Of a stretch of 40,347 nt of DNA, positions 528 through 33,409 are shown piece by piece. A program made the position numbers and the translations under genes. Where the stretch lies: NCBI GenBank assembly GCA_028277205.1, contig JANQGT010000004.1:1-40347 (forward strand), read 5' to 3'. Below the pieces are notes generated by a model. The model was not told the DNA's origin, did no database searches, and saw nothing but the letters and a program-made list of their open reading frames with translations. Within the stretch, counting starts at the first letter, position 1. Every line of letters begins with the position of its first letter. This DNA is from Candidatus Altimarinota bacterium (GTDB lineage Bacteria > Patescibacteriota > Gracilibacteria > BD1-5 > UBA2023).

Positions 528-1742
528 CTACCGCTCCCCCAGCTCCACCGTCCGTATAAAGGTCTCGTCGGTATCGGGTCGATAGATTTTCAGGGAGATT
601 TCATCTCCTGGAAATTCGTCTTTGAGGATATTTGTAAGTGTAGAAATATCCGCGAGGGGTACGCCGTCCGCCTCCAGGATCACGTCGCCGGTGCGCAGAT
701 CCGCACGCTCGGCTGGAGAGTCCGGGATGATGGCGCTCGCTCCCTCCCCGCGAAAGAGAATATAGCCATATGGCACAGGGATATCGAGCGCCTCGATCTG
801 ATCATCGGTGAGGGCGACGTAGTAGACCCCCAGAAATGCGCGTTTGATCTCGCCGTAGCGCTCGACGGAGTCGATGAGATGCCCGATCTCCTGACGCGAA
901 ACCGGTATCGCAAATCCTACGCCGTTTGCGCCATCGACGATCGCCGTATTGACCCCGATGACTTCTCCGTCCAGATTCACGAGCGGTCCGCCGCTGTTTC
1001 CGGGATTGATGGCGGCGTCCGTCTGGATGAGCCCGGAAAGAAGATCCGATGATCGCGACAGTCCGTCCGACGCCTCGATCGTGCGCTCCAGCCCGGACAC
1101 GACGCCGAATGTGAGCGTATTTTGAAATTCGGCGAGCGCATTTCCCATAGCGAGTACAAACGAGCCAATCTCCATCTCCCGAGCACTATCCACGAATGTC
1201 GCCGAGGTTGTCGCGACCGGTTTTTCTCCGGTATCGTCCAGCGCCTGCACGACAGCCAGATCGGTCGTAGGATCGAGGGCGAGCACCGTACCGGTATACT
1301 CGACACCGTCCGCAGTGATGACAGTGTAGTCCGATCGCTGGTCGGAGACGACATGTTTATTGGTCAGGATGAGTCCGGTATCGTTTATGAAAATACCGGT
1401 CCCGCCGCCGATTTCCCGGCGTACCGTCCCGCCGGTCGATCAGCCGAGCATGCCAAACGGATCCCGGCGAAAGACGCGAATATCCCGACTTGCGACGATG
1501 CTCACCACCGAGTCGGCAGTGGATTCGGCGACTGCCTTCACGCTCTCCTCGATATCCGAGAGACGCGAGACGACAGGGGTCGCACGCACATTTTCCCGAG
1601 AGACCGGTATATCCGACGCGATACCGGGCAGGCGAGCCGACGTACCGGAAAACTCCGAGAGTACCCAGTAGGTGGACACACTGGAAAATGCGGAGGCGAT
1701 GAGGGTAAAAAGAAGAATGAGAACGAGATGAAATTTTGACAT
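528..1742 (-). CDS. htrA: HtrA/DegP-type serine protease with PDZ domain, membrane anchored
   Basis: A 404-aa trypsin-like protease for quality control of proteins outside the membrane. Residues 1-25 form a hydrophobic signal anchor (MSKFHLVLILLFTLIASAF). The catalytic triad is visible: His130 in TNKHVV, Asp161 in DPTTDLAVV and Ser250 in PGNSGGPL. A PDZ domain follows at about residues 305-400 (PAERADLRTGDVILEADG). One in-frame TGA (codon 101, plus-strand 1440-1442) sits in the linker before the protease domain, in GMLG-G-STGG, and is read as Gly; with a standard code the gene would look split there. The stop is TAG. The ATG at 1742 is preferred; an in-frame TTG at 1754 is possible. It stands alone with its own putative promoter. 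Confidence 0.9.
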
Positions 1743-1813
1743 AAAAAAAATCAAGAGAAGCCAAATCGCCAGTGTAGCCGATGACTATAAGGATGGATTA
1801 CAATCCAAAAGGC

Positions 1814-2067: not shown

Positions 2068-3255
2068 CTAAAACAGCTCGTCGAGAATATCCTCCTCGCT
2101 CATGTCGTCACTGATCTCGTAGAGTCGCTCTGCTACGATATCGGCGATCGCGAGCAAAAAGCGCTCCATTCGCTCATTCATATTCGGACGATCGAGCATC
2201 TCGTCGATACGATCGAGCACGCGCTCGTAGACCATTTCTTTATCCTCGTCCGGGATCGCGTCGAGTCGAGCCTCGAGCTGCGCCTGAAGCGACTCAGAGA
2301 GCGCACTTCGGATTTCGCGATTCTCTTCGTAGACATCGTGGCGGACGTGCATGTTTTCCTCCAGCATCTCCATGAGTCCATCGAGCATCGCCTCGAAATC
2401 CTCGACCCTATCATCCGCGATATAGGGGATGAGCGCATCGTACCAGTCATCGAGAAGCATTCTCGCCTCGTCAATGTATCCCTCCTCTTCCAGCGCCTCG
2501 CGTACATCGCCATCATCCTCGGCGACCGCTATCGCGAATTCTCTCGCTTCTTCGCGCAGCATTCGCCATTCTTCATGAAATTCTTCATTGAGCATTTTTA
2601 TGTCCTCGTACTCCTCTTCAGAGAGATCGGCATCCAGATAGTCTCGGATGCGTCCGTACTCCTCGTGAAATTCTTCGCGATGCTCGCGGATCTCGCGGCG
2701 TCCCTCGCGACGATTATCGCGCATCTCGCCATGGGCGTCGCGCATCTCGCCATGGGCGTCGTGATACATTTCCCGGGGCTTCATGCGGTATCCCTCGGCG
2801 AGTTTTTTCTCAAGCTTTGCGATCATGTCATCATGCTTTTCCCCGAGCGCCTGCATGTGCTCATCGGCGACATACGGCATGAGTGCATCGTACCAGTCAT
2901 CGAGAAGCATTCTCGCCTCGTCAATGTATCCCTCCTCCTCGACCGCCGCCAGGATATCCTCCGGCTCTACCCCCTCTTCTCTGAGATCATGAGCGAAATC
3001 ATAAATCTCCTCCTGCAGCGCTTTCCAGTCATCGTGAAATTCCTCATGCATTTCCTTGACGTCTTCCATCTCATCCTCATCCAGATCATCGCGCAGATAT
3101 TTCATGAGCATATCGTCATGATGGCGCTCGTGATGATGCGATCCGTCCTCCATATCATCATGCTCGGCATAGGCGAGAGATGATGATGCGGAAAAAACCA
3201 AAAGAAGCGCCGCAAGGGAAAATGCGAGCTTCTCTCGAAAGCGAATATGTGACAT
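2068..3255 (-). CDS. Secreted acidic helical protein with an internal duplication, function unknown
   Basis: A 395-aa protein with an N-terminal signal peptide (residues 1-29, hydrophobic core LAFSLAALLLVFSASSSLAYA) and then an almost entirely charged, Glu/Asp/His/Arg/Met-rich helical sequence. Two copies of a roughly 80-residue unit are visible near residues 58-140 and 208-290. Each has the order E-D-V/I-K, EEFH-(D/E)-(D/E)-W, then the block EEEGYIDEARMLLDDWYDAL followed by PY(V/I)AD. Over that block the DNA of the two copies is also nearly identical (2432-2486 and 2886-2940). A separate 7-residue unit AHGEMRD is repeated in tandem. The His/Asp/Glu-rich start (GSHHHERHH) could bind metal. 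No family is recognised; an extracytoplasmic chaperone or metal-binding role in the style of Spy/CpxP is only a guess from composition. Stop TAG, no internal TGA. Confidence 0.8.
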   Translation of the reverse strand: MSHIRFREKLAFSLAALLLVFSASSSLAYAEHDDMEDGSHHHERHHDDMLMKYLRDDLDEDEMEDVKEMHEEFHDDWKALQEEIYDFAHDLREEGVEPEDILAAVEEEGYIDEARMLLDDWYDALMPYVADEHMQALGEKHDDMIAKLEKKLAEGYRMKPREMYHDAHGEMRDAHGEMRDNRREGRREIREHREEFHEEYGRIRDYLDADLSEEEYEDIKMLNEEFHEEWRMLREEAREFAIAVAEDDGDVREALEEEGYIDEARMLLDDWYDALIPYIADDRVEDFEAMLDGLMEMLEENMHVRHDVYEENREIRSALSESLQAQLEARLDAIPDEDKEMVYERVLDRIDEMLDRPNMNERMERFLLAIADIVAERLYEISDDMSEEDILDELF

Positions 3256-3297
3256 GGCTATGTATGGTAAAAAAGTAAAAACCGATAGCCGCAGACG

Positions 3298-3325
3298 ATA
3301 CTATCAGATGACAATAAGAACTCAA
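3298..3325 (-). promoter_or_regulatory. Putative promoter of the acidic secreted protein gene
   Basis: TTGAGT (3325-3320), 16-base spacer and TAGTAT (3303-3298) on the minus strand, about 45 bases upstream of the ATG at 3255. Confidence 0.5.
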
Positions 3326-3353
3326 TACAACAGTGTGAAGACTCTGTGAAGAC

Positions 3354-3435: not shown

Positions 3436-3511
3436 TGGTGGGTCCTGCGGGGATCGAACCCGCGACCATCGCCTTAAAAGGGCGCCGCTCTACCGACTGA
3501 GCTAAAGACCC
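3436..3511 (-). tRNA. tRNA-Lys (anticodon UUU)
   Basis: The minus strand folds into a full cloverleaf of 76 bases. The acceptor stem GGGTCTT pairs with AGGACCC (one G-T pair). The D-arm is GCTC-AGTCGGTA-GAGC. The anticodon loop CTTTTAA gives UUU. The T-arm is GCGGG-TTCGATC-CCCGC. The 3' CCA is encoded in the DNA. It decodes lysine codons. It is not the tRNA-Gly(UCA) expected to read UGA, which is not in this window. Confidence 0.95.
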
Positions 3512-3525
3512 GAAAAGGTAGGCGC

Positions 3526-3553
3526 ATTGTATGAAAAAGTCCCTGCTTGTCCA
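3526..3553 (-). promoter_or_regulatory. Putative tRNA-Lys promoter
   Basis: TGGACA (3553-3548), 16-base spacer and TACAAT (3531-3526) on the minus strand, ending 14 bases before the mature tRNA 5' end. Its position makes an upstream start for the giant plus-strand gene at 3531 less likely. Confidence 0.6.
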
Positions 3554-3596
3554 GAGCTTCTTTTCAGACATTTTCACGCAACTCTTTTTTTACAGA

Positions 3597-6500
3597 ATGA
3601 GAAAAATATGGTATCATCACCGCAAGTCTCGTCCCCTCAAGATTATCGCATCCGTGCTCTTCATCGATCGCATCGTCATACGCCGCGGACAGCAGACGCT
3701 TTCGTGGCTGCTGATCGCCGCCATCCTCATCCTCAATACCGTCCGCATCCCCTTCGAGGCGGCGAGTGCCGAGGCACAGGTCCGAGCAGTCGATCTGGTC
3801 TCGCTCATCGTCGAGCGCGATCTGTACACGGACTCGACACGCGATCTGGTCGATCGCTATGCCGAGGATATCCAGGCGGCGCTGCCTGATACGCGTGCGG
3901 CGATATTTATCATAGATTCGGACATCCACCCGCAAAACATCGCCGCCCTCAATGAAAAGCTCTACTACGAATGAGACGGCACGGGTGTCTCCCAGCTGGT
4001 CGGGACGATCCTCATCGGCGATGTGCCGCTGCCCGTCGTCCATGATAGCGGCACCAGTTTTTTGTCGATATATCCGTACATTGATTTTCGTGAGAAAAAT
4101 TTCATTTTCGATGAGTCGGAGGGAAAATTTGTCAAACGCGAAAACGACATAGCGGACGCCTCGCCCGAGGTATGGCACTCTGTCGTCGCGCCGAATACCG
4201 GCGATGAATCCGAGGATCGGCGCAGACTCTCAAATTTCTTTGAAAAATCGCACGAATTTCATACTTCTCAGGGACGATTTTCCGAGCGGCACGATCCTCC
4301 GTATGTGTTTTATTTTGATGCGCATCACGATCAGCTCTCCACCAGACTCATCAGCTGGGAGTCATACTCGCGCTACCTCGAAAATATCGAGAGCTTTGCC
4401 TACAATCGACACAACAAACACCTCGCCGAAGAGCTCTACGAAGCAATGCAGTCAAACATGACGACGATGCTCGGTGGGACGGATGCGCGTATCCAGGAGC
4501 TCCTCGCGGCGCAGGGACTCTCCGGGTCAGATGTGGATTCGGGAATGAGATTTTCCGCGATGCCGGATGTCCAGAGCAGGCGCGTCATCGACAAAACAGT
4601 CGAGCCGTTTTACGGCATCCTCAATCCGACATACATCGGCGATCTGCTCTGATACGCCAGAAATACGGGACGATACGGCGCGACCGAAAATGTGCGCGTA
4701 GATATCGCGAGCGTACTGGTGGCAAAGCAGGACGAACTCATCCGGGAAATACTGCGATCCGGCAACACCAGTGTCGAGGACATGATCGACTCGATCATCG
4801 AAAAATCCATCGCGACGCCCCTCTACATTCCCACGAGATACGATGTCGACATCACGATCACCAGCACGTGAACTACGAACAGTGGATGAACGAGCGGCGG
4901 ATGAGCGAGCAGTGGATGAACAGGCGGCGGATGATGAGCAGCCACAGGATGAACGAGCGGCGGATGATGAGCAGCCACAGGATGAACGAGCGGCGGATGA
5001 GCGAGCAGTGGATGAACAAGCGGAGGACAAACAACGACCCGAACGCAAAAAGCCGAGTATTCATATCAAAACTATCTCTACGGACGGCGCGCCGATACCG
5101 TCACTCATCCAAAACACTGCAGCATCGCTCGCGGAAGCTCGCTGGTCGTGGAGGCAAATCGAGGATTCAATGTGCTGCACTCTCAAGAAGATGCCGATCT
5201 TCTTTTCGAGGATTTGCCCGAGGGACAATGTTTCGCTGAAGGAGAAGCGAAGACGATGGTCTACTGGTGAGGAGGATCTCCCCTCAATCTCGACATGACC
5301 TCCATAGCTGGGGGAGATTTTGACATGAAGCTGCGGGAGCGTACCAATAAGTGATTCATAAGACCCGCTTTCGATCTCAGGGGTTCTCGAGAGATTCCCT
5401 TCGTAGCACCGCTCGAGACGGATCCGAGCGCGGGACATGCACCGACGGTCTCGGGCTCCGGCATGAATGCGGCATCGAGCGGATCGGGTGTCGTGATCGC
5501 TCCGCCGCCGGACGAAAATCTGCAAAACACTACAGCACCGATCCGAGTAGCATCGCCGTTTGACTGCTACGACGGGGCGATGGTGCTCCAGCCCTATACG
5601 CAAACCTCGTCGTCCTCATCCTCGGACGACAGCAGTGCCGGACAGACCACGACGACATACTACCCGGAGGAGACCGGAGGAGGACGTCTGAGCTGTATCT
5701 CCGAGATCCGGACGATGGCTCCGCCCAGCTATGAATCCGTGATGAGCGCGGATGCATGACCGTGCGTCATCGACACGGTCATCCTGGACGCCTCGACTGT
5801 GAAACAGCAAGGCGCCGCATGTACCACGTCTACGCAAGACGAAACCACCACCACGCAAATCAAGCGGACATTTGAATTTCGAAGTGTGTCATCCGTCCTG
5901 GAACACAAATCGCCCACCGACTCGGAGCTTTCGGTCATCGCCTGAAATCTGGTCACGCCGTCCATCCCCATCGATCGGGATCGGTACGTCGATTTTCTGG
6001 ATGCAAACGGAGACTACGCAAAAATCGTCTATCCGAATTTTTTTCGTATCGATATCGATGATCTCTCGAATCTCAATCTGGACTTCGCACGCACGAAAGT
6101 GATAGAGCTGCTGGATCAGACGAGTGCGAGTCTCAATGCAATCCCAGGCTCCCCGGGCGATATCGACCTCACGGCGAGACTCGAGTCCACACCGGAAGTC
6201 CTGGACACTATCACCGAAAGCGTCCTGTGGAACAATCTCGACAATATCACGGCAAAGTACGCTTTCGCACTGGAAAAGCAACTCAATGAAGACGCGATTC
6301 AGGATGACGCGATCTCTGATCATAAAGAGGACTACGAAATCGCGTCCCTCATCAGCACGGGAGAAGCCGAGGCAATGTATGTAAAAGTCGATCCCGAGAC
6401 GACATCCGAGCCGCCCGCGAGCATCGCGGGAATCATGCAAAGCGCAAACGAATATCGCAGCGCCCGCGACGCAAGCAACGTATGAGTATGAGTGGGCAAT

Positions 6501-9500
6501 AGAACTATACGATGAGTCGGCACAAGCGCATGAAGCGGCGCATGAAGCGGCGGATGAAGCGCTCAGTTTGAGTGCGGACCGCCCGAGGGTGTGCCGATAT
6601 GGGAATGGCTTCCGGCGATATTTTGCTGGCTCGGGACGATCCTCCCGCCGACCATCTCGGCGGGAAGCTGCTCGGAGACGTCGTTGCTTGACTATTTTCG
6701 TGATGACTTTGAAAATGACTTTAGCGGTCCGGTGGGCGACGGAGATGCGAATGGCATTTTGGACGCCCGCGAAGCGGTACGCTACGGCTCGATAGACCTC
6801 TCGTCCGATGCCGTCACACTCTCGCACTCCACGAGCGGAGAGCTGTCCGCGGTCATGCTCTCCGAAGCATGAGAAGCACTCGCCTATGATTCATTTTCCC
6901 GGGTCGAGTTTTCGGTCGATCGGGTCGTCGATATCGAGAACGGCGAACGCGAAATCGTCTACGACAGTAGCGACGAAACACTCGACGATCCGGAAAATCT
7001 GGAGCCGTACGTACAGTTTGCGAGTGCCGAGGTGCCCGTCACACAGGGGCGCGCCGGGTACGCATTTTCTACGAAAAATCGGGATAGCGACATCACATTT
7101 CAGGCGCGCGTAAACGGAGAAAATGCCCAGGGCGAGACCGTATTTACCACGCTGTCAAATCCCGTCACGGTACGCGTACGCGCCGACAGACTCCAGGTGA
7201 CAGAGTCGGTACGCACCGACGATGACAGTGATTATGAGATCGGGACGCATTTTATCGCGGGAAATCCGTACGGTGTTCGATTTGATATTTCACGGCTTGA
7301 CAGTCACGGCAGTCCCGTAGAGCTCTCGGGCGGACTGCGGTATCGCCTGTATGACGCGGCGGATCGTCCGATCTTTGAGGGATCTCGGGATATCGAGGGA
7401 TCCGTCCTGCAATTTGGCGATCCCATCCTGCGCACCGCCGGATCCTACCGATTCGAATTTTTCGATGCGGACGGCTTGCGCGTCGAGCATACTTTTACCG
7501 TGCTGCCCGCCCCGCCGAGTCAGCTCGACGTCACTCCCTCGACGAGCGTCCATACGCCGGACGAGAGCGTGTATATCCTCATCCAGCCGCGTGATGTATT
7601 TGGAAATATCGTCAATAGCGAATTTTTGACCATACGGGGCGAGATCGTGGGCGGACCGGGACGATTCGTCGACCAAGACGGAAATCCGGTCGAGACGCTT
7701 GAGCGCACGAGCTTCGAGGGATATACCACCTACGAGCTGCGATCGGACGAGATCGGCGAGACGAGTTTCAAATTTCGCATCGTAGACGAAGCTGTCGAAA
7801 CCCCCATTACTTCGATAGAGACGACCGACTTTGCGCGGCTGTCCGTACAGGTGGAAAACAGTGATCGCATCACCGCGTGAGGCAGTCCCCACGCCGTCGC
7901 ACTGCGTGTGACGGACGAGGACGGCGCGACTCTCAGAGGGTACAATGGCGTGGTGGCGCTCGATTTTCCCTCGGTATCAGGACAATTTCATCCCGCGTAT
8001 GTCCAGATCGTCGACGGAGAAAACCGGCAATCCGTCACATTCACACCGGGATACGTCGCGGGAAATGACATTTCGGCGAGCATCGCGCTGCCGGGCGTCT
8101 CGCAGATCTCGTGAAATACGCTGACCGTCCTGCCGGACGCGGCGATGGAGATCGCACTCTCACTCGAAAAGGATGCTGTTGAAGCGGAGTTTGGCACATC
8201 GAATGCGATCACCGCCACCCTCTATGACCGCTATGGAAATCTGGCATGGAATCACCGTCCCATGTCCGCCGAGTTTTTCATCGAGGAGCAATATCAAAAA
8301 TTCGTCCGCCTCGAGGGAAATGCGAGCAGCGCAAGACGACAGTTTGAGCAATGACGAGCCCGGATGAACGCGATCGCGACGAGTCTGCCGGGGACAGCGT
8401 ATATCAGCGCGCGTACGACGCCGGACCTCTCCACCCAGAGCTTTACCGTCACGGGACGGGCGTCCGGCTCGGATGCTGCGACTCTCACGATCAGCGGTCT
8501 CGGAGCGGACGCGGTGCGATTTGATTCGTACTATCACTATGACGGCGAAAAAATCCGCGGCAACCATTACAATGCGCTTTTTTCGGTGATGGCGGGCGCC
8601 GACTACGGCAATATCACCGTACCGGGATATCTCGCGGGGGAGGCGGTATTTGATGCGGATTCGCGCGCCCTCGCCGTCTCCACGCTCCTGGGGCGTCCGT
8701 ACTCGCGCGATGAGATGTTTTCTTTTACCTCGGCATGACAGTACGAATCCGGCAATGGCAGTCTGGCTGTAGGACTGGAGGCGAGTATCGTCGAGCGGGA
8801 CGGTGCGACCTCGCTTGATTTTTATGACTCCGTCACACGAGAGCGCATAGCGCGCGCCGATATCAGCATGAGCAGGGCAGTACTCGTCGCCTGCGATCAG
8901 CCCCGATCAAATGCGGTGGAGGCATGCGGTATCCCGGCGGATGCGGAGTCGTACATTCTGGCGGCATCCCTCGCCAGAGGGTCGCGCGTCGAAACCGTGG
9001 ACGGCGTGATGTCGCTGTCGATGGGAGACACCCGGATATTTTCCGTCGATGAAACCGGTGTGATCGACCGAGCGCCGACGACACGATTTGAGATCGATCC
9101 GAGCGCCCCGGGAAATTTTCTCGGAATCCGGGTTTTCGTCAATCGTACTCCGGTCTGATACCTCGCGTACCGGTTTTCCCGGATGCGCGTCGCGGATCAG
9201 AGCGCCGAGCTGTCGTTTTCGGATATATCCGCCCGATACGGGTACGAGTATATCTATGCCGGAAATTCTTCGAAAGCCGAGAAAGGAATCCGGTTTTACC
9301 GAGCGGATACCGGAGGCGCCGACGATATCGACCGGAAAAAAGCCGGTCCGTTTCAGTCGGGACTGGAGTACGCCACCGAGCGTACCGGTATCGGCTGGGA
9401 GGGGGACAATACATTTTTACTCGAGTTCACGAGCGGCGGCACGTCTCTCGGTGATGCGACACGCGCATACCAAAGCTATCTCGGCATCACGATCGGCGAT

Positions 9501-12500
9501 CCCACCATATCGCTGCCGGTACGTGCGGATGCAAAAAAATTTGATCAGGGAATCGGAAAGCGCCTGTACAATAACAGTGCGGATATCACCGAGGCGTCGA
9601 TTCCACTTGACTTCAATGGAGACGATGCCCCGGACATTGCCGTATTTTCGACCAATGGAGCTATCCGCCTGCTCGCCAATACCGGCGGAAAATACCGGGA
9701 TATGGGATACCTCGCCTCCGTCGCGGACGCAGGCAGACGCCGAAAAGATACGGGGGATTTTCGCGGTGACGGCTACGACGACATCGTCATGGCAGACGAG
9801 GATCATGTCATATTTCTGCTTGAAAACACCCGGGGAAAATTCGAGCGCAGACCACTGCTCGTATTTGATGAGGGCGCCAGTGCGCCCAGACGATTTGACG
9901 TGGGCGTCATGCAGCTGCAGACCTACGACATGGACGTGGACGGATATACCGACATCGTGACAGTAGACGAGGCGGGAGAGCTCAATATCCTCTACGGTCG
10001 CGCCGACGGTCGCTTTGATAAAAAGCTCATCGACTCGGGATTTGGTGTGCGCATCACCGGAAAGACACGCTCGACCGAGGGCGCCGTGTATTTCGACGGA
10101 CTGCGGCAGATCACCCCTACCGAGCAGCGGGACTTTTTGGTAGAGTCGGAGGCACTCCGGCTGAGTACCGAGACCGACGTCAGCGGATGAATGGACGAGG
10201 CGACGGCGCGACGTCTCGTCGATGCTCAGATCTACTATACCGAGACGCGACAGACCCTCTCGCAGATCGAGTCCGTCCCCACGACCGCGGATATCGCAGG
10301 CTCGGCGGGTACGGACGACTCGGGAGCACCGCGAGAGGATATCGCCGAGAGCGTGAGCGCGGGCATGGCGAGTATCGAAGCCATGGGAGGTACGACGGAT
10401 TTCCTGGTGCCAAAGCGTACGATAGAGAGCCGTACGTATATCCGATCCGAATACGCCGAGGGAGAAAATCTCCGCGTCGAAAAAACCTACACCGACAGAA
10501 ACGGTGACACACTCCAGACAGACGACATCGTGGACGTCACCGTACGCCTCACGAATACGGGCGATGAAAATCGCACAAACGTCGAATACCTCGACAGCTA
10601 TGAAAAAAATGTCTTTGATCTGCCGGATACCGCGCAGGTCAGCCTCATCCAGTCAAATGGCGAAGAAACGACACTTTCCTATGATCCGCTCGTACAGGGC
10701 GAGTACGATCTCTCGGTCGACGTCGGAGAGCTGCCCGCAGGGGCGTCGGCGGAGTTTTCCTACACGCTCGAATCCCGACCCATCGCCTATGGAGAAGTCC
10801 TCGTGGGCGATCTGGGGTCTGATGCCGGCCACGGCGAGATCGCCGTACGCGCCAATAACGTCTGCGGCGAATCATACACCGCATGGCACTCCACCGAGCC
10901 GTATCCCCGTACCTATGCGACGGAAACCCTGGACGTCGCAGAGCCGGCAAGTCTCCCGAGTCCCGTCACGGAGGATCTGGTCGATGCCGATCAAAACGGT
11001 ATTCCCGATATTGCCGAGGCATTCTCCGATTCGGATGGAGATATCTCCGAAGAAGACCTCGACGCTTTTGCCGAGTACGCCGAAGAAGCACTGGACGAGT
11101 ATCAGTCAAACGAATATGTCTTTGCTTCGTGAACGCAAAACTCCGCCGATCTTTTGGTGTATGACGAGGACTCGGATTCTGTCGATGTACTGGGCATGAG
11201 CAGCGCCGATGTGGACAGCATGATCGCCTCGGTCAATAATATCGTCGAAGGACTCGGCTGCGGATTTGGTGGTGGATCCTGTCTCTCCATGCCCCTAAAC
11301 TGGGCTCCGCTCGCGCCGGGATCGGCACCGACCATCTTTGGATTTCCGGCGGGCATCCTCGACCCGTCGACCGGTATCCCGATATTTTCCGGGATCAACT
11401 GGGTCGGACTCTGACCACTGTGTCTCCCGGGAGTATGGCCGCCACTCGTACAGCTGCCATTTCCGGTCTGTGGAGGCACCGGAGCCGGAGGATTTCTGGG
11501 GACGCTGAGTCCTACGAATGTGTTTCGGCTCTATATCACTCCGACACTCACGCTCGGGGTCGGGGTCGCAGCATGCTTCGGAGGACCGTCGGCGATCGTC
11601 GGACGCGTCCCTCCTCCGGGAGTCTCGCCGCTCGTCCCGGGCGGAAACTGCGTAGTCGCCGCCCGCCCCCTCTGGAACTGCGAGGCGGACGGATCGGACG
11701 GCGACGTCGGAGAGTGGTCATACACCGCCCCCGGACACTATACCAATGCCGGATCATGCACACCCCAGAGCCAGCGGATCGGCTACGCCGCCACTCCGGA
11801 GGAGCGCCAATCGTTTCAGGAGCGCATGATGGCATACATATCGGGAGACAGCTCGGTCCTCAGCTCACTCTGAGCCGATATCACGAGGGGGACGTCGAGC
11901 GATTTTACCAGTGGACAGCCGCTCATCAGCTCGGGTCTCCCGGGAGGCGGAGGCGATCCAAATCTCGAGGTCGAGATCGATACGGACGCGCTACAGGATT
12001 TTGATTTTGAAAATGTCGTCAAAATCTCGCTCGATCGCATCCCGGCATTTCCCGATTTTCTCATGGAGTGGGTGACCCGACAGCTGGAGGAGATCATAAA
12101 CAAGCTCACCTCTCTCCCCACACTGTATATAATTCTTCCTGACTTTTCACTGTTTGAGACGAGCGGATGGGTCGGATTCACAGACAAAATCGAGCAAGCA
12201 TACGATGACGCAGCAGCGGAATACGAGGATATCGATCCGACATTCGACACCGATACGGGATTTGAAGAAGTGGAGGCAGTCGAAGGAGAGATAAACAGTT
12301 TTCTCGCATGACAAAGCGACAATATCAATACTATCGGTCGCAATATCTCGGGCATCAAAGCGGCGTATGAATTTCTCTCCAATCTCCCGCTACTCTCCAT
12401 AGAGCCGGAAACCGTACATGTGCGCATCCCCTGGATCCCTCCGGAGGATATAGAAAAATGGATCCTGGACGCCGAGGCGACGCTCAAGCAGTGGGAAGCG

Positions 12501-15500
12501 GAATTTGACGAGACAGTGGAAAACTGGGAACAACTCGGGACAGAAGAGGGCGCCCTGGAAAAAGTCAATATCGAGGCAGGAGCACTCCTGCAGAGTCTGC
12601 GCGCAAATATCCAGACACTCAAGGAGTATAAAGAATTTCCGGAAAAGCTCCTGCGATACCTGGAGTACAAAGAAATCTACGCCGAGCAAATCCTCTGCAA
12701 TATCGAGGCGATCGAGTTTTTCCTCGGAGGTTGGCTCGCGGAAAACGCCGCGCGATTCCGTGCGTGGGTGGAGCTGTATATCCTGATACGCGCGATCCTG
12801 GAGGGGTGGCAGCTCATCATTGATATCTTCGTAGAGTTTGATGCAAACTGCGGCGTCTGCCGAAACGAGCGATGGGATCTAAAGCATTTTCTCATCAAGC
12901 TGCTCTCGATGGTGATTCCCGATCTGCCCATCATCATCTTTCCGAAATGGCCCGATATCATCCTGGATCTGCATAATATCCGTGCGGGACTCGTGGTCCC
13001 GATACCGGAGTTTGATTTTGATGTGACGCCGCTGGTCCTCCCCGCTCTGCCGGAGCTCGATCTCCCGGATGTCCCCACGCTCACGCTCGCGCTCCCCGTA
13101 CTCCCCCTCCTCCCGAAAATTCCACCGCTCCCATCTCTGCCAGACATTCCGAGCTTGCCGCTGCCAGAGCTTCCGAGCTTGCCGCCTCCCCCGACGATTC
13201 CTGCGCTCTTTGGTATCATAGAGATGGCACTGCAGATCCTGCGGCTCATCGCGCTTATTATCTGTATTTTACGCACCAATCCGTTTGCGCCAGAGTGGCG
13301 CGTCGGTGATCTGATCGCACAGCTCACGGAGCGACAGGGGACGCTGCCGATCGACTTTCTGTTTTTGGAGTTTCCGCAGTTTTCGATGAGCTTTATCGAC
13401 GCGATAAAAGTGACGACGTACGTCAATCTGGAGTTCGAGCTTGATTTTATCATAGAGATGGCGAGCTCCACGATGAAACCATTCAATACTTTCACGGCAA
13501 ATCTCTCGAATGCGACGAGCCATGTAAAGCTCTTGGATCTCGACTTTAGTGGCACGATCCCGGAGGATATAGAGATCGACGCCTCCACCGGCGAGGTGCG
13601 CGGTCTGGAAGACGTGGGCGAGCTGCCGGAAGCACTCGAGGGTCTGGAGGGATTTGCGCCGACGCACGAGTATATGCGTGAGCGTCTGGGCGCGATCGCG
13701 CATTTCGCATCGGGATCGCTGCATCGGCTGGCTGCGGGTATGCAGTCCGAATCCGAACGCATGCTCTCGGTCTCGGAGCTCTCGGACGAGATGGCGGCGC
13801 AGATTCCAGCGCTGAAAACGATCGCACCGGATATTGCCGCTCGATTTGAGGCGGCGGTATCCGCCGGCAGCGGGGACGCGGACGAGATCACCGCCGAGCT
13901 CCAGCAGACGCAGCGTCAAAAGTTTGACGTGCTCAAATCGTATATCAGGGAGGACATGCGCCGAAACAACGAGCGGATGGCGGAGCTTCGAAAGATTATC
14001 CAAAAAGAACATTCGCTCAGCGAACTATCGTTTATCCAAAGGGATCTACCCCACCTCATCACGATCATCGCAAATACGCAGGCTGAAGACGAACTGCGAA
14101 AACAGGCAATCGAGGGCGAACTGAGAGCCCTCAATGATCGCATCGCCGACCCGCTGTCCCGTATCCTCGATCCCTCGACCGACCCCATGATGCGAGAGCT
14201 TTCGCAGATGCGCACGAAAGCACTCTCGCAACTCCATGAGGCTGGGAAGTGACGCAACACATCATGAGCCCTCGCACTCGGGGATACCGCCTCGTCCGCA
14301 TCATTTTCACTCGCGGCGGATACGAGCAGTGCATCCGGTACATACGATATCGCAGACAGCTACCGCTACAACTACGAGGGTATCTACTACCTCGACGCAG
14401 GGGGAAATCAGACGAGACTCTTTAATTATACAGAGCTGCTGACCGGACGCGAAAAGGCGCGCGAGCTCGACATCGACGATGATGGTGATCGGGATCTCAT
14501 CTACACGATGAACAATATCACCTACCTCAAAACGAATCATACGAATACTCCCGAGTCCCGGCATATCACGGATGCACCGCGCACGCGCGATCTTTCGGCA
14601 TTTCTCGGCATCGATGCGGACGACCCGGTCGCCGCAGGCGCACCGGAAAATTTCTCGGAGGATTTTGCCACGACAGGACGGATCAATGCTTCTTTTGACG
14701 CTGCCGATATCCGAGAGGAGCAGCGATACCGGCTCGAGATGTACGACTACGTCGATCGATTTGATCGGGTAAAATCCGGCGAGACGCCGCGATCCATCAC
14801 GCCCGCCACCGCGCGACAGTACGTGGATCTCGTCACGCGTGACGATAGCGCCCTCGTCACCGACAGTACGCGTACCGGTGCCATCATCGGACGCGCTCCC
14901 GCCCGAGTGCGCTCATCGGTCGGCGACATTCGCATGCGGGGATTGAGTCTGGAATTCGTAAATCCAGGGGAGACCATCACCATCCGCGCCGGAAGCCGCG
15001 TCTATGCGGGAGGAGGAGGAGCGGAGATTTCATACCTCCGCAGCACGCAAACAGCATCCGAAACCGTCACACTCGCACCAAACGCCTGGATCGAATTTTC
15101 CGCCACGACGCAGGTATCGGTCTCGACGGGGCGACTTGTACTTCTCTCAGAGTCGCTTCGTGATGGGATCATGCTCGGACCGGACGAGCTCTCGGACATG
15201 CCGATCGTACCGGACGTACGACTCTCCGTACCCGAGGGGGGACGCATATTTCTGGAGTACTTCGATGACGGACGACTGATCCTGGACACGCCGAGCGAGT
15301 ACGAAATGTACGATCTCGGCGAACGGGACGGGGACTATAGCATCAGCCTGGATCGACCAAATGGTCTTTTCTACGCGCGACTTGCGGCATTCGACAAATC
15401 GGGTGAGCTCGGTACGTGGGCGTCGCAGACGCTTCTCTCGCCCCAGACTGCGGCGGATGCCACTGCGCCGTCCATTCTCGCAGGCAGTCGGATCCGCATT

Positions 15501-16520
15501 CCCGTGTATCAGCCATATACACTCGATCTGCAGGGAAAAATCACCGATCTGGGGACGATCACGCGTCTCTGGCTCGATATGGATCTGGATGCGGATTCGG
15601 ACGGCGACGGCAATCCGAAAAACGACAATGATTCGCTGAGTGATTCGCTCGAGGAAAATCTATCGTACGGCGCAACCACGCGCATAGATGAGGACGGTAT
15701 GCCGACGCTTCAGATTGATTTCACTCCCTATGATGAGATCATGGAAAAAACCGTCCGTCTCTTCGTAGAGGACGATGCCGGAAACATCGCAACGAAAGAC
15801 ATGACTCTGTCGGTCTATGCTCCGACACCGATCATCGAGGGCTACGACGGCGAGTCTACTGTCGTATGACGTCTCGACGAGTCACTGGAGGACATGCCCG
15901 TTGATCTCTTGCGCTTGCGAAATGGATTTATCACGAAGGTCGATCCAGAAGAAGAGGCAGTACACACCGGCACGGGCGGACGCTACGAATATACCGAGTC
16001 CGGCTCCGGCGGAGCGCTCATATCCCGTGACGGCGAGACGATCGCAGCTGTCAATTTCAAAACCGGGCTCCTAGAGCTCGTAAACGGCGGCGGCTACACT
16101 ATCAGAGCCCTCGCACGCGATGGAGAGCGGGACATGCGCCTGGAGCTCTCGGACGAGAGCGGTATAGTCGTATACCGCCAGACATTCGGACTGCCGGCGG
16201 GGACGCGCATCATACCCATCGCGGATTTCTCGGCGGTCTCGACGGACGGAGCATACCTGCGCGTCATGGATCCGGCATTTCGCTACGAGCCAAATGATTC
16301 TGATGCTCCGGTGCTCCCGGACGGCGGATTTCTGGTGCGATCGGACGGCACGGCGATCGTAGGATTTGACGAGAGGGGGCATATCATCGCGGTCTCGGAC
16401 TCGGACGCCGAGCTCGTCTACGACCGACTGGAGGATTTCATCCTCATGCGCGTGCAGAGCGGCGAAGATACTGTCGTAGAGATACTCTACCGTCTGGACA
16501 TCGAGTACGCGATACGATAG
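3597..16520 (+). CDS. Giant multidomain surface protein (about 4,307 aa), UGA-rich
   Basis: One frame stays open from 3597 to the TAG at 16518 with about 38 in-frame TGA codons and no TAA or TAG. Residues 1-34 are basic and 35-49 hydrophobic (LSWLLIAAILILN), a signal anchor or signal peptide ending near AASA. Visible regions: Gly/Thr/Ser linkers at about 425-480 and 963-988, written largely with TGA; Ig-like beta domains of bacterial Ig (Big_1) style at about 1300-1505 (DVFGN, then GEIVGGPGRF); FG-GAP/VCBS-like repeats at about 2000-2145 (DFNGDDAPDIAVF, DFRGDGYDDIVMA, DMDVDGYTDIVTV); Asp-rich calcium-loop-like motifs near 1046 (GDGDANGILDAREA), 2461 (VDADQNGIPDIAEA) and 4000 (DADSDGDGNPKND); a Cys/Pro-rich block at about 2560-2710; a Leu-Pro repeat at about 3140-3205; a helical, probably coiled-coil part at about 3400-3550. 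It is most likely exported and cell-surface bound. Adhesion or host contact is inferred from architecture. The ATG at 3597 is chosen because the one at 3531 lies in the tRNA promoter. Confidence 0.85.
4878..5025 (+). repeat. Minisatellite encoding a UGA-dense Gly linker
   Basis: Two perfect tandem copies of a 33-base unit lie at 4925-4957 and 4958-4990, flanked by a second near-identical element (starting at about 4892 and 4988). In the gene frame the region has 11 TGA codons in about 50 codons. Read as Gly it encodes a Gly/Thr/Ser/Ala linker. Because the units are multiples of three, copy-number change would only alter linker length. Confidence 0.8.
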
Positions 16521-27415: not shown

Positions 27416-30400
27416 ATGGCTTTCACACGCGTTATTTTCGGGATATTCTGTATTTTTCCGACATTTTTCTTTTCCGTGGCTCCGGCATCGGCAGATGTTT
27501 GTTTCTTTGGTGTCTGAGGCGGCTGCGACTCATGAGACAGCGTCCCATACTGCGACGACGAGACCTGCACCATCGAGGAGGGGATCAGTATCGTCAGAGA
27601 GGGCATCAACGATATCGAGACAGAGCGCACGGCTTCACAGTATATCCAGGACGTGCTCGAGTATCTGCTCGTATTTCTCGCGATCGTGGCGGTGCTCTAC
27701 GTCATCTATGCGGGAGTGCGAATACTGACATCCGGCGGAAACGAGGAGGCGATGAAGGAGGGCAAGAAAAATATCATCTCGGTCGTGATCGGAATCATCC
27801 TCATTTTCCTCGCGTATTCCATCGTCCGATTCATCATCGATACGGTCAATACGGGCGATGCGGGTACGACCGTCGGTACGGGTATCTTTATCACTCAGGC
27901 GTACGCCCAAGAGGCAGGTTCAAACGACCCTTCGAGAGCTCAATCCTCGGACTATCAGATTTTACCAAATACATTTGCGGAGAGTGAGCCGTTTGAAAAC
28001 GCTCCCGACATATCCACACCCGCAAACATCGCTCCGACGGATACCGACGGAGGCGCGACGATACGGGAATCCCGGGATATCTGATCGCCCGTACGAGTGG
28101 CAAATACCTCACCAAATACCCGCAGCATCGACTTTACAGCGTCGATCCGCAGTACGACCACCGCGACGGATACCCAGTCATTCGACGGATACGCCACGGC
28201 GATCCAGCAGATCATGGCGACGATGGAGCGCGAATACACGATCGAGTGATCCATTTCCATCTCTACGCTCCGGGAGCTGCAGGAGCTCGTCCGGGAGGCA
28301 CGCACGACATTTCCCGATGAGCGAAATACCATTTTCAACAATAATCTCGCGACTCGCGTCGAAACCGCCATCGAGGTGCTGGCGCGAAATCCGGAATCCG
28401 ACGAAAATATCCGGGATCTCGCAGAGGCACTCGTCAATTTCCTCGAAAATATAAAAATCGAAGAGATCTCCGGTACCGTCGAGGTCACGCCGCGCGAGGG
28501 AAATGCCCCGCTCACCGTCACGCTCCGGGCGGTCAATGTCGTCGATCCGTCGGGGATCGTCATCCCGGAGGACAATTTCGTCTGGTGGATCAAAACCGCC
28601 GAGAGCGGTCAAACCGTCATCGGCAGATGACCGAGCATATCGCATACTTTTCGCGAAGAGCGGGTCTACACGGTGTTTCTGGCAGTACGATCCGCCAGTC
28701 GAAACATCGCGTGAAAAACAGACATACGACCACTACAGACCAGTACTCTCGTGTCGGTACAGCCGAGAGTCGGTACCATCCGACTTTTTTTGAACGGCAA
28801 TGACGTGACGGATCTGGATCGATTCAAGGTCACACCGCGAGAATGAGCGGAGGGAGTGCTTTTCGATGCGACCGCGACCGAGGTCGGCGGCGGGACGAGG
28901 ATTCTTTCGACATCGTGGAATTTTGGCAATGGACGATCCGTGCGTCGTACCGGAGCCCCGAGAATAGAGGAAGCCGTCTACGCCACCGAAGGCATCTACG
29001 ACGTATCGCTCACCCTGCGAACCAATGAAAACACGACCATCAGAAAAGAGCTGGAGGTGGAGGTGCGCGATCCGATCGCCCGCATTCGCACCGACTCTGG
29101 CGAGAGAGTGGCAAATGTCGGAGATGAGATGCGATTTTCCGCATCGACAAACTATAGCGATCTGCAGCTGCGGTATTTTTGGGAGGTGATCGATCTCGAG
29201 ACCCGGGAGGTTGTTTTGACCTCATCGCAAAGAACGATTTCCTACGCCTTTCCGGCGATCGGAAAATACCAGATCCGCCTGCGTACCACCACTCCCCTCG
29301 CAAAGGAAGATACCGACTCTGTCATCATCGAGATAGAGCCAAAGGATCCCATCGTCGGATTTCAGTCGCGCATCGAAAACTCCGAGCTGCCGAATGTCGT
29401 CACATTTGACGCGACGCAGAGCTACGATCCCGATACCTTTACAAATTCGAATCTGCAATACGAGTGGTCGATCAACGGAAATGCGGTCATACTGGACAAT
29501 CCGAGTCGAAACGGAGCAATGGGGCAGTACACCTTTACTACCAGAGGAACCCACCGCATCCTCCTGCGCGTGACAAATCAATCGGGACGCACCGTCACAA
29601 AGGCGCGCGACATCACCATAGATTCGCTGCTCTCGGTACGCCTCGCGACGACACCGAGAATCGCGAGAGTCGGAGATGCCGTCTCATTTATCGCCGATGC
29701 TCCGAATGCTCTGGTATACGAATGGAATTTCGGCGACGGTGAGGACGACACGACCAACATCGGACGAATATCTCATACCTATAAACAAGCCGGCTCATAC
29801 CGGATAACACTGCGAGTGCGCGCCGCAAACTCGCGCGAGCAAAACTCGATCACTCGCGAAGTCTACATCACCGAGGCAAATGCTCCCTTTGCGGTCATCG
29901 ACATGTCGCAAAATTCCGAGCCGCTTTTCCCGACATCCGGGGCGTGCGGAGACAGACCCGCATACATCGTCACCCGCGAATATCCCGTCCAGTTTTCAGG
30001 AGCCGAGAGTGTCAATGTAGAGGGGCGATCGACGAATCTGGACTCCGTATGGCAGTATGCGGGAAATACCTCGGCGCAAAATTCATTTTCCTATCGATTC
30101 GACGAGCTTGGGTGTTTTCCGGTATCGCTCACCGTCATCGACAAAGAAACCGGAAAACGCAGCACGCGATCGACATACGTCTCGGTCCGAAACGTCCCGC
30201 CGGAATTTTCCGCTATCCAGATAAACGCTGATACCGAACAGGATCCGGTCGTCGTGAATGTCTCTGCGACAAACGCGAGAGATCCGGACGGCGTCATCGT
30301 CTCATACCTCTGGTACTACTACACCGACAATGATCCGGAGCCGCAGGATTTTCGCATTACCCGGACGCCGCAGACATCGTTTGTCATTCCGAGAGTGACG

Positions 30401-33400
30401 GGGACCTACTATTTCGGAGTGGTGCTCGAAGACTCAAACGGTGCGAAAGTCAACTCTATGGAGGTACGTGATGAGCGCTACTCGCTGAGGATGGCAAGCG
30501 ACAATATCAATACTCCTCTACTCCAGCTCTCCACATCAAGCAATTCGATCTTCGCATGAGACGACGTGTCTTTCGACGTCACGGTAAAAAACGTCCTGGG
30601 ACGCGATATCACGACGAGCGCCGAGTACGAGTGGGATTTTGACGGAGACGGATTTTATGATGAGACCACCGAAACACCCCGCGTGACGCACACCTACGAT
30701 CGCCCCGGCACATTTACTTTTCGCGTCAAGGCGACCAATAAAGGACTCTCGAATACAAAGACCGCACAGATCACCGTACGAAATGTCCTCAAACCGGATT
30801 TTGAGATCGTCACCATCGGAGGTGAAATCGCCCTTTTCAATACGACGCAAGGAGTCTATACGGACGCATCATGGAGCGCCGGAGACTGGGAATCCGAGGA
30901 GAATTTTTCGGTCGTACATGATTTTGGCGATACGCTCCCGCAGACCGTCACGCTCACTGTCACCGACGGCGAGAGCACCCGAGAGCTCACGAAAATCATC
31001 TCCCCGAATCGACGAAATACCCTCCTCGTCGAGCGCTATCCCGGCAGCCTCATCGTCTTTAGTGTGCCGGATCTGCGACAGGGCGCCATCACGATCGAGC
31101 GCCCGGATCAGCCGCTGTACATCTATCTGGGAAAGTCGAAGGGAAACATCGCCCGCTATGAGATCGACACCGACGTCACCCTCGATTCAAATCTCAACGG
31201 AACCCCGGACGACGACGCCGATAATTCGAATACGGCATCTCTCACAGACGGATCGCCGTACGTCATCCGAAATATCTCGGACACCGATCCCTCGCGTACG
31301 ATGCGCATAGCCCTCTATGATGAGGATGGAAATCTCATCGACGACGAGGAAATCGAGATCATCCTCGCCTACAATGCGCCATCGCTCGCAGAAAGCGAAC
31401 TCGAGTCAAAGACGCAGATCTCCTCCGCCATCGCCGAGCGTGACCGCGTGGCGCTCGCCGAGCTCAAAGATCTCATCCGATCAGGCTCAAAGGAGCATCG
31501 TCTGTATCTGATGGAGCACCTCGCAAAGCTGCAGGAAAGCTGGTTTGACGAGCGGGAAAAGACCCGCGCCATCATCGATTTTCAGGAGTATATCGCCGGG
31601 ACAGCATCCATCCCCGACTCCGAAAAAGCGCAGTACTACGGCTATCTGGACGGCTTTCTCTTTTCCGACGAGCAGACCGAGGATGAGATCGCGCTTGCCA
31701 CATCGGTCATTCGAAATCTCGTCCCGAAAGACAATCCCCGCTACGACACGATCACGCAAAATCTCTCGGAGATACTGTCCCATCCCACCGACACGCCGAC
31801 AAATCGCGAGCTCGGACGTGAGATCCTGGAGATCGTCAGAGCCGACGAGTCCATCTCCGTCGAGGACAAGCTCATCATCCGCGATCAGGTAGAGGTCATC
31901 GTCTACGGGGGACTCGAAAATATTCCCGATGACATCGCAGACGGACAGCAGGAAACCGAGTCCGGAGGCATCATCGCCTCTATCATCTCCGTCGCTAAAT
32001 GGATCGCATTCGGATTTCTCGGGATCGTCGGATTCTTCGTATTGCTCTTTCTGGTGCTCTTCACGGTCTTTCAGTTTTCAAACAAAAAGAAAAATCTCGG
32101 ATTTCAGGACTATGTCATAGAGCTCTTTACGAGTACGGAAGTCCCGGGAGCAAAGGTCGAAAAACCCAAAGAAAAGCCGAAAGACGAGAAAAAATCAGAA
32201 ACGCCGAGAGTCGATCCGCTTGCCATCGCAGCATCGGACGAGAGCGCGACGACGAGCGAAACTCCGCCCGCAGAGACTCTTTCGGCAGAGCCGGAAACAC
32301 CAGATACGACGACGACCGAGACGAAAACGAGCGAGGATACGCAGGACACGGCGATACCGAGCTGGCTGCGTGGAGCGACGGACGAGACCGGATCACCCGA
32401 TGCGAACACACCGGAGTCGACGGATACTTTGTCTGCTCCACCTCAGAGTGAGAGCGGTGATGCGGATGCGGCGATACCGAGCTGGCTACGCGAGAGTGCC
32501 ACCAGCACACCGGAGACTCCGACGCCCGGCGACACCCCCGCGATCCCGGACTGGCTGAGGCAAGAGGGACAATCGGATACTGTCGCCCCGGATATTTCCT
32601 CCGAGACTCCGAAAACCGAAGAAACGCAGACGCCAACCGAAGAGAGTGAGTCCGCTCTAAATACGGACGCAACAACGGAACAATCGGATGAAGCTATCCC
32701 CGACTGGCTGAAAGATACCGACAACAAGGCACTGTCACTCGACTCCGAAAAACAAGAGCAAGAGACGGACTGGGGCGATATGCCGATCATCACGGATGAA
32801 AATACGCCGCCCTCCGGTGAGAGCGGGATAGACGGATCCGAGGCATGAGCCGATACGAAGACCGACTCTACAGCAGTCAACGCTCCGCAAGATACACCCG
32901 AATCATCCGATACCACCACCACTCCGGCACCGAGCGAGACGGATGACAGTATCCCAGACTGGCTAAAGGGATGGGAAAAGGATGCTCCGAAAGCGGACGA
33001 TACGACGCCATCCACGACGGATGAATCAGTCAGAGTCATCCAAAAAGAGCCGGGTCAGGACACAAAAACCGATGAGCAATCAGACGAGAAAACAGAGCAA
33101 TCAAGCGATCCAAATACTGCACCGACCGCCGATGACGATCTGCCGGACTGGCTCAGAGAATGGCAAGAGCAAGAAGCGCAAACCGCCAAATCGAACTCAA
33201 AGCAAAGCGAAGTCAGTACAAACGACGAGCCAAAAACAGCAAAAAAATCAAATGCGCAAGAAGACGGTGCGGATACTGTGGCACAGCAGACGGACACAGA
33301 TGAAAAGCCACGCACACGAAAACCGCGCACAAAAAAGCCCAAAACCGAGACCGCCGATACAGCGGAAAAACCGAAGCGCACACCGAGAAAAAAACAGACC

Positions 33401-33409
33401 GGAGAGTAA
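27416..33409 (+). CDS. T4SS-pilin-like / PKD-repeat / IPxWL-tail membrane protein (1,997 aa)
   Basis: One frame from ATG 27416 to TAA 33407 with nine TGA-Gly codons. Order: signal peptide 1-26 (ending APASA); a Cys-containing segment (residues 29-53); a two-helix domain at about 79-141 (YLLVFLAIVAVLYVIYAGVRIL, then SGGNEEAMKEGKKN, then IISVVIGIILIFLAYSIVRF), closely resembling the T4SS_pilin/VirB2-like proteins common in CPR genomes; a helical segment; at least six beta domains with PKD traits between about 350 and 1190 (WNFGNG, YEWNFGDGEDD, YEWDFDGDG, HTYKQAGSYRITL); a charged helical part at about 1325-1500; a TM segment at about 1522-1556 followed by NKKK, placing the tail inside by the positive-inside rule; a low-complexity acidic Thr/Ser/Pro tail with six IPxWL-type motifs; and a Lys/Arg-rich end. 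The fusion is unusual. Probable role: a surface appendage or contact protein linked to the cell interior (inference). Confidence 0.85.

What the first reader, a model, noticed from the sequence alone, without database searches (positions are those of the whole stretch)
3597..16520. A 4.3-kilo-residue surface protein that is invisible under the standard code
A single 12.9-kb frame, nearly a third of the window, stays open through about 38 TGA codons. It mixes FG-GAP-like, Ig-like, calcium-loop-like, Leu-Pro-repeat and helical regions behind an N-terminal signal anchor. For a reduced-genome, host-dependent lineage this is a large investment and suggests an adhesin or host-contact protein. Standard gene calling would report more than a dozen unrelated hypothetical ORFs.
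Basis: partly seen in the sequence, partly recalled or inferred. Interest (0 to 1): 0.75.

Follow-up and report, generated by a model that had tools for sequence, protein, structure and literature searches.

The report
Ancient giant envelope protein of Gracilibacteria
The reported 12.9-kb gene is real: it encodes one exported protein of about 4,300 residues that belongs to an old family of giant cell-surface proteins found in most of a class of tiny, probably host-dependent bacteria, and its relatives carry a cell-wall anchor that this branch lacks.

Summary
Under code 25 one frame (3531-16520, + strand, 38 TGA) stays open; orthologues show it is one gene. Of 58 code-25 loci, 36 hold complete frames (3,494-4,566 aa). 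The 21 standard-code relatives (Peregrinibacteria, Peribacteria and others) show the same protein in frames of up to 5,313 aa open under the ordinary code. Window TGA positions align to Gly about as often as GGN positions do.

The family is class-wide (93 of 99 near genomes, own included; 20 and 23 of 379 sampled phylum genomes with two probes, all in the class). It has a signal peptide, an N-terminal domain whose predicted fold best matches gingipain (C25) proteases but lacks Cys at the aligned nucleophile position, Ig-like regions, FG-GAP, conserved Cys, and an invariant Leu-Pro array. In 20 of 21 standard-code loci it carries S-layer homology (SLH) domains, mostly as a C-terminal extension starting where the window protein ends; 0 of 58 code-25 loci carry them.

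Best reading: an exported, disulphide-stabilised envelope scaffold, wall-anchored in relatives. Host adhesion is plausible but untested. Giant surface proteins in this clade are already in print; this family's architecture and the anchor difference I did not find described.

The parts
   Evidence: collinear orthologues
3589..3617 (+). promoter-like site TTTACA-17-TATCAT with TG before the second hexamer (candidate promoter)
   Evidence: consensus match only; total number of such sites is not above shuffles
3699..3755 (+). hydrophobic core of the signal peptide (aa 57-75 of the 4329-aa frame)
   Evidence: hydropathy; 19 of 43 code-25 frames not open at the 5' end have A-x-A within 22 residues after their most hydrophobic early window (the 43 include 5'-broken frames)
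3783..6365 (+). N-terminal domain with gingipain-like (C25/caspase-like) core and long inserts (aa 85-945)
   Evidence: AlphaFold2 pLDDT 78, pTM 0.72; top four structural matches all gingipains, Z 11.9/8.5/7.9/7.9, next unrelated 6.9
4869..5015 (+). Gly-rich linker (aa 447-495) holding 12 of the 38 TGA
   Evidence: translation
5904..5906 (+). His792, conserved in 56 of 57, candidate equivalent of the gingipain catalytic His
   Evidence: equivalence inferred from motif and order, not from superposed coordinates
6918..8450 (+). Ig-like / invasin-like region (approximate, aa 1130-1640)
   Evidence: Invasin_D3 in 3 and Big_1 in 2 of 11 orthologues; no Pfam hit in the window protein itself
9609..9788 (+). 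FG-GAP_3 repeat (aa 2027-2086)
   Evidence: Pfam 28.2 bits, cut-off 26.9; in 10 of 11 orthologues scanned
10470..10772 (+). DUF11-like stretch, below threshold (aa 2314-2414)
   Evidence: E 0.06, under the cut-off
11259..11759 (+). Cys-rich conserved domain (aa 2577-2743)
   Evidence: Cys columns 43, 50, 148, 173 in 72 of 72 and 209 in 71 of 72 rows of A4
12549..12851 (+). predicted long helix of about 100 residues (aa 3007-3107)
   Evidence: AlphaFold2 model, pTM 0.50
12918..13202 (+). Leu-Pro / Pro array starting at PIIxFPKWPD (aa 3130-3224)
   Evidence: invariant and near-invariant Pro in 72 rows, both codes
16491..16520 (+). C-terminus; site where standard-code orthologues continue into an SLH extension
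3436..3511 (-). tRNA-Lys(ttt), divergent neighbour
   Evidence: same neighbour in 5 of 36 other loci

Best explanation
One giant envelope protein, inherited across the class. Shown by computation: a single gene; TGA read as Gly; collinear class-wide orthologues; SLH wall-binding modules in the standard-code branch and none in the code-25 branch; conserved cysteines; FG-GAP; a gingipain-like predicted fold. Inferred: it leaves the cell by Sec, forms disulphides outside (the genome has VKOR), and stands out from the wall as a long multi-domain scaffold. In the standard-code branch the SLH modules bind a pyruvylated wall polymer. The code-25 branch dropped that anchor (or the other branch gained it) and is held by an unknown means: an uncleaved signal anchor, the Cys-rich/helical/Leu-Pro module, or partner SLH proteins. 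The C25-like domain most likely works as a non-catalytic binding or structural module, and the faster-evolving Ig-like and C-terminal parts would be the exposed surface, plausibly used in cell-cell contact. I put about 0.75 on envelope scaffold and 0.4 on direct host adhesion (the two can both be true).
For: Orthologues: 93 of 99 genomes incl. own; 26 of 27 in the family, 50 of 50 in the rest of the order, 17 of 22 in other families of the class (counted). Two separate domains give 20 and 23 of 379 sampled phylum genomes, all hits in the class. SLH: 5 of 11 full-length orthologues by Pfam, best E 1.4e-27; own SLH HMM hits 20 of 21 standard-code loci and the giant in 0 of 58 code-25 loci, 47 of which are complete at the 3' end. 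Tree of the 2535-3345 module: code-25 rows are one side of a branch, SH-aLRT 100. CsaB-type pyruvyl transferase (PF04230, 2.8e-32), other SLH proteins (13 hits over the cut-off) and VKOR (2.9e-15) in the own genome. Fold. Conservation concentrated in N-terminus and 2550-3330.
Against: The window protein itself has no SLH and no other recognised wall anchor, so its attachment is unexplained. No expression, localisation or lattice data. The fold match covers only 125 residues of a 991-residue model, and Foldseek alone gave E 0.058 for 1cvr (probability 0.99). The class family coded f7 mostly lacks the full-length protein: only 2 of its 15 sampled genomes show a remote match, in frames of about 1,050 aa, so it is not indispensable. 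A-x-A cleavage-type sites were found in under half of the frames (19 of 43).
Confidence: 0.68

Rival explanations
1. A dedicated host-attachment adhesin: the Ig-like/FG-GAP parts bind receptors on the prey or host cell.
For: FG-GAP and invasin-type Ig domains; giant surface proteins with integrin/DUF11 domains are proposed for host recognition in Vampirococcus (PMC8080830, passages) and in S. methylophilicida (PMC13059738, passages).
Against: Single-copy in the own genome and conserved over most of the class in two genetic codes, with the most conserved parts not the adhesin-like ones. Host binding untested.
Confidence: 0.35
2. An active cell-surface cysteine protease of the gingipain type that processes host or envelope proteins.
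For: Gingipain-like fold; a His conserved in 56 of 57.
Against: No Cys at or near the aligned nucleophile position (none within residues 861-881 of 57 rows); the near-invariant Cys459/608 pair always occur together (56 both, 0 single), as a disulphide would; Pfam C25 does not hit the giant (4 of 117 genomes ring, in frames of 51-615 aa).
Confidence: 0.08
3. A true S-layer lattice subunit, i.e. the protein tiles the cell surface.
For: SLH in standard-code orthologues; class-wide conservation; S-layer genes reported for Peribacteria and Gracilibacteria (PMC4736985, PMC6851277, passages).
Against: SLH also anchors non-lattice proteins; the code-25 branch lacks it; lattice formation cannot be read from sequence; 4,300 aa is large for a lattice unit (recalled).
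Confidence: 0.2
4. Several separate proteins or an artefact: the frame is open only because TGA was read through.
For: Table 11 gives 40 pieces.
Against: Standard-code orthologues are single frames of up to 5,036 aa when complete; TGA sites align to Gly.
Confidence: 0.01

Closest known systems
Giant membrane/surface proteins of Vampirococcus lugosii (ten longest 1392-4163 aa; DUF11, integrin, fibronectin domains; PMC8080830, passages read)
   Same: clade of reduced genomes with UGA = Gly, size, exported location, integrin/DUF11-type domains
   Different: the passages seen do not describe a class-wide orthologous family, an SLH-bearing sister branch or a C25-like domain; whether its 4163-aa protein is an orthologue was not tested
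SLH-anchored S-layer and surface proteins (Pfam PF00395)
   Same: standard-code orthologues carry 2-3 SLH modules; own genome has a CsaB-type enzyme and other SLH proteins
   Different: the window protein has no SLH
Gingipains RgpB/Kgp, peptidase family C25 (PDB 4ief, 1cvr, 4rbm, 6i9a)
   Same: best structural matches of the N-terminal domain, with a conserved His
   Different: no Cys at the aligned nucleophile position, no Pfam C25 score, large inserts
Huge proteins (>5000 aa) enriched in Cand. Peregrinibacteria (PMC11573180, passages read)
   Same: the standard-code branch includes frames over 5000 aa
   Different: the passages seen give propensities and say these proteins had no COG assignment; no link to this family seen

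Membership tests
Genetic code 25 gene (TGA = Gly) | TGA in frame at positions conserved as Gly | tested here: met
   TGA sites align to Gly at about the rate of GGN sites; TGA share of Gly falls with GC (Spearman -0.95, 57 loci)
SLH-anchored surface protein | SLH modules in the window protein | tested here: not met
   none
SLH-anchored surface protein | SLH modules in orthologues | tested here: met
   20 of 21 standard-code loci; 0 of 58 code-25 loci
SLH-anchored surface protein | pyruvyl transferase for the wall-polymer ligand in the genome | tested here: met
   (family-level hit; substrate not known)
S-layer lattice protein | forms a two-dimensional lattice | not testable with these tools
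   needs microscopy
Peptidase C25 (gingipain) | caspase-like core fold | tested here: met
   ranks 1-4 gingipains, Z 11.9 at 2.4 A over 125 residues, next unrelated 6.9; core only
Peptidase C25 (gingipain) | sequence profile PF01364 | tested here: not met
Peptidase C25 (gingipain) | catalytic Cys | tested here: not met
   no Cys at the aligned strand in 57 rows; model coordinates were not inspected
Peptidase C25 (gingipain) | catalytic His | tested here: inconclusive
   His in 56 of 57 at a plausible position
FG-GAP / integrin-alpha-like protein | FG-GAP repeats above the Pfam cut-off | tested here: met
FG-GAP / integrin-alpha-like protein | complete seven-bladed propeller | not tested
   this region was not folded; own HMM finds one strong and one weak repeat
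Host-attachment adhesin | binds a host cell | not testable with these tools
   none

The most novel reading that the evidence does not exclude
The family is an ancestral, class-defining envelope backbone built on an inactivated gingipain-like domain. It was wall-anchored by SLH in the ancestor, and the anchor was lost once, on the same branch as the UGA-to-Gly reassignment, so that in Gracilibacteria/Absconditabacteria the giant became a differently attached or releasable contact organ in the shift to an epibiotic or predatory life.
Probability: 0.22. Interest if true: 0.72.

Novelty: new variant of a known kind. Interest (0 to 1): 0.5.

Why it matters
Giant surface proteins are repeatedly mentioned for these uncultured bacteria but, in what I read, without families. 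This one can be followed through most of a class and across a genetic-code change, gives a clean natural test that TGA reads as Gly over 4,300 codons, and offers a single conserved target (antibodies, cryo-ET, proteomics) for asking how these cells build their surface and hold their hosts. The SLH difference between the two branches is a specific, testable evolutionary event.

Tried and rejected
Antisense frame 3474-8567 (1697 aa, 13 TGA): set aside, since the orthologues read the other strand. Separate SLH gene next door in code-25 loci: six-frame search found only one weak hit (L084, 11.5 bits). Homologue in the own genome of the large exported protein that follows the giant in standard-code relatives: only E 0.006 over 45 residues. 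Second FG-GAP region near aa 3630: not found with an HMM made from the first. PDB by sequence: phmmer of the giant gave only hits at E 0.04 and above, around its Gly-rich stretch; profile A3 gave none. Fold of the 2535-3345 module: no match above the level usual for helices (best Z 8.3, a designed protein); a known fold is not excluded. Conserved second transmembrane helix: none shared by all of the 14 orthologues listed. Conserved C-terminal motif: a loose pattern fits 35 of 47 code-25 C-termini; it may just be the last strand. NCBIfam gave nothing. Papers: searched; I did not find this family, a C25-like domain or the anchor difference described, but only listings and passages were read.

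Rows dropped: L082 (duplicate of L081) in counts; L041 and L043 have a broken 5' part, L094 and L108 a broken frame. Alignment A3 took 57 rows of 61 proposed and A4 72 of 77 (rows with long inserts, partial rows or near-duplicates left out).

Full report
OBSERVATION. Under table 11 it falls into 40 pieces. The start is probably later than both: a promoter-like site lies at 3589-3617 and a divergent one, placed for the tRNA-Lys, at 3553-3526 (consensus matches only), so GTG3654 (4288 aa) is my preferred start (inference).

IT IS ONE GENE. A 1200-aa N-terminal query finds relatives in 93 of 99 genomes, own included; the six misses are G012, G080, G083, G092, G095 and G096. A scan of named genomes gave 80 loci, one of them a duplicate. 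I count 58 as code 25 and 21 as standard code. 36 code-25 frames are complete, 3,494-4,566 aa, median 4,253; 16 standard-code frames are complete, 3,332-5,036 aa. Frames of the 21 standard-code loci have no TGA except one to three in L115-L118 and L120, whose code-11 frame is only 11-259 aa shorter. The two sets of loci overlap in genomes. The TGA share of glycine runs from under 2% to 90% and falls with GC (Spearman -0.95, 57 loci); in the window it is 38 of 370 Gly. TGA sites are Gly in relatives about as often as GGN sites are.

DISTRIBUTION. With the N-terminal domain as profile, 20 of 379 phylum genomes match; with the 2950-3335 module, 23 of 379. All matches are in the window's class; 37 class members are listed in the sample. 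One family of the class (code f7) is the main gap: of 15 f7 genomes searched with the second module, 2 have a remote match in frames of about 1,050 aa. The protein is single-copy in its own genome (query the first 2199 aa).

ANATOMY (numbers from ATG3531). Hydrophobic signal core 57-75. 85-945: domain with long inserts; AlphaFold2 pLDDT 78, pTM 0.72. The second-look aligner puts gingipain entries 4ief, 1cvr, 4rbm and 6i9a first to fourth (Z 11.9, 8.5, 7.9, 7.9; 125-134 residues; rmsd 2.4-3.2 A); the next unrelated entry scores 6.9, and caspases, of the same clan (recalled), follow at 6.7 and below. Foldseek alone ranks 1cvr second, E 0.058, probability 0.99. A His is conserved in 56 of 57 rows, in a His-Lys-Ser-Pro-Thr stretch that I compare from memory with gingipain's His-Gly-Ser. 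At the strand that should bear the nucleophile no row has Cys within residues 861-881 of the model numbering. Cys459 and Cys608 (model numbering) occur together in 56 rows and never singly, which fits a disulphide. So: gingipain-like fold, probably not a protease. I could not inspect coordinates.

Ig-like parts follow: Invasin_D3 in 3 and Big_1 in 2 of 11 orthologues. FG-GAP_3 at 2027-2086 is above its cut-off and present in 10 of 11. DUF11 is below threshold. 2577-2743 is Cys-rich: four Cys columns in 72 of 72 rows and a fifth in 71. 2840-3330 holds the best conserved part: a helix of about 100 residues and a Leu-Pro array with invariant prolines in both code groups. Its model is weaker (pLDDT 71, pTM 0.50) and has no convincing fold match.

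THE ANCHOR. Pfam finds SLH in 5 of 11 full-length orthologues, best E 1.4e-27. An SLH HMM built here finds it in 19 of 21 standard-code giants, and in a 20th (L108) in the next frame, where the gene is broken; L116 has none. Mostly it is a C-terminal extension that begins where the window protein ends (residue 4321); L097 runs off its contig and shows only an internal pair, and L103, L104, L106 and L117 have an internal pair as well. None of 58 code-25 giants has SLH, 47 of them complete at the 3' end. In the tree of module 2535-3345 the code-25 rows are one side of a branch (SH-aLRT 100, quick method, unrooted), so one loss or one gain, with L116 extra, accounts for the pattern. The own genome does keep SLH proteins elsewhere (13 hits over the cut-off), a CsaB-type pyruvyl transferase and VKOR. 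Downstream of the standard-code giants, 16 of the loci share a ~350-aa and 16 a ~1,000-aa exported-looking protein; neither has a Pfam family above its cut-off and the larger has no clear homologue in the own genome.

HOW IT PROBABLY WORKS. Export by Sec, disulphide formation outside, and a long multi-domain body on the wall. In relatives SLH binds the wall; in the window's branch the means of attachment is unknown. The conserved N-terminal and 2550-3330 modules look like the structural core, the faster Ig-like and C-terminal parts like the exposed surface. Envelope scaffold about 0.75, direct host adhesion about 0.4. All of this paragraph is inference.

WHAT IS KNOWN. Passages of PMC8080830 report that the ten longest Vampirococcus proteins (1392-4163 aa) are inferred to be membrane-located, that most carry interaction domains including DUF11, integrin and fibronectin, and that they probably make its fibrous surface. 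PMC13059738 (passages) reports large adhesion-domain surface proteins and 8-10 SLH proteins in another Absconditicoccaceae member. PMC6851277 (passages) reports S-layer-domain proteins, large extracellular proteins and one large invasin-domain protein in a gracilibacterium. PMC4736985 (passages) reports large exported, often Cys-rich proteins, FG-GAP proteins and S-layer genes in Peribacteria. PMC11573180 (passages) lists Peregrinibacteria among the bacteria richest in huge proteins. So the kind is known. The orthologous family, the gingipain-like domain and the anchor difference I did not find.

VERDICT. Observation confirmed, interpretation partly supported, novelty: new variant of a known kind, interest 0.5.

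Noticed in passing
window 27416-33409 (+): A second giant (1997 aa, 9 TGA): T4SS_pilin domain (PF18895, 1e-10) at the N-terminus fused to several PKD domains and a tail with repeated Ile-Pro-Asp/Ser-Trp-Leu motifs.
   Followed up: partly
L101-L121 downstream of the giant: In standard-code relatives the giant is followed by conserved exported-looking proteins (~350 aa and ~1,000 aa, 16 loci each; a smaller one in 9 loci) without a Pfam family above cut-off.
   Followed up: partly
window 528-1751 (-): HtrA-type protease (Trypsin_2 plus PDZ) beyond the tRNA-Lys, upstream of the giant.
   Followed up: no
window 2068-3252 (-): Highly charged His/Asp/Glu-rich helical protein with a signal-like N-terminus and no Pfam hit.
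   Followed up: no
G000 C51, C52, C37, C14, C2:108 kb: Other SLH proteins in the own genome, possible partners or alternative anchors.
   Followed up: no
L116 C-terminus; L103, L104, L106, L117, L097 internal: One standard-code giant without SLH, and five with an internal SLH pair.
   Followed up: no
G259:C1:1226733 and G392:C24:39646: Family f7 genomes with a remote match to the Leu-Pro module in frames of about 1,050 aa: possible shortened relatives.
   Followed up: no
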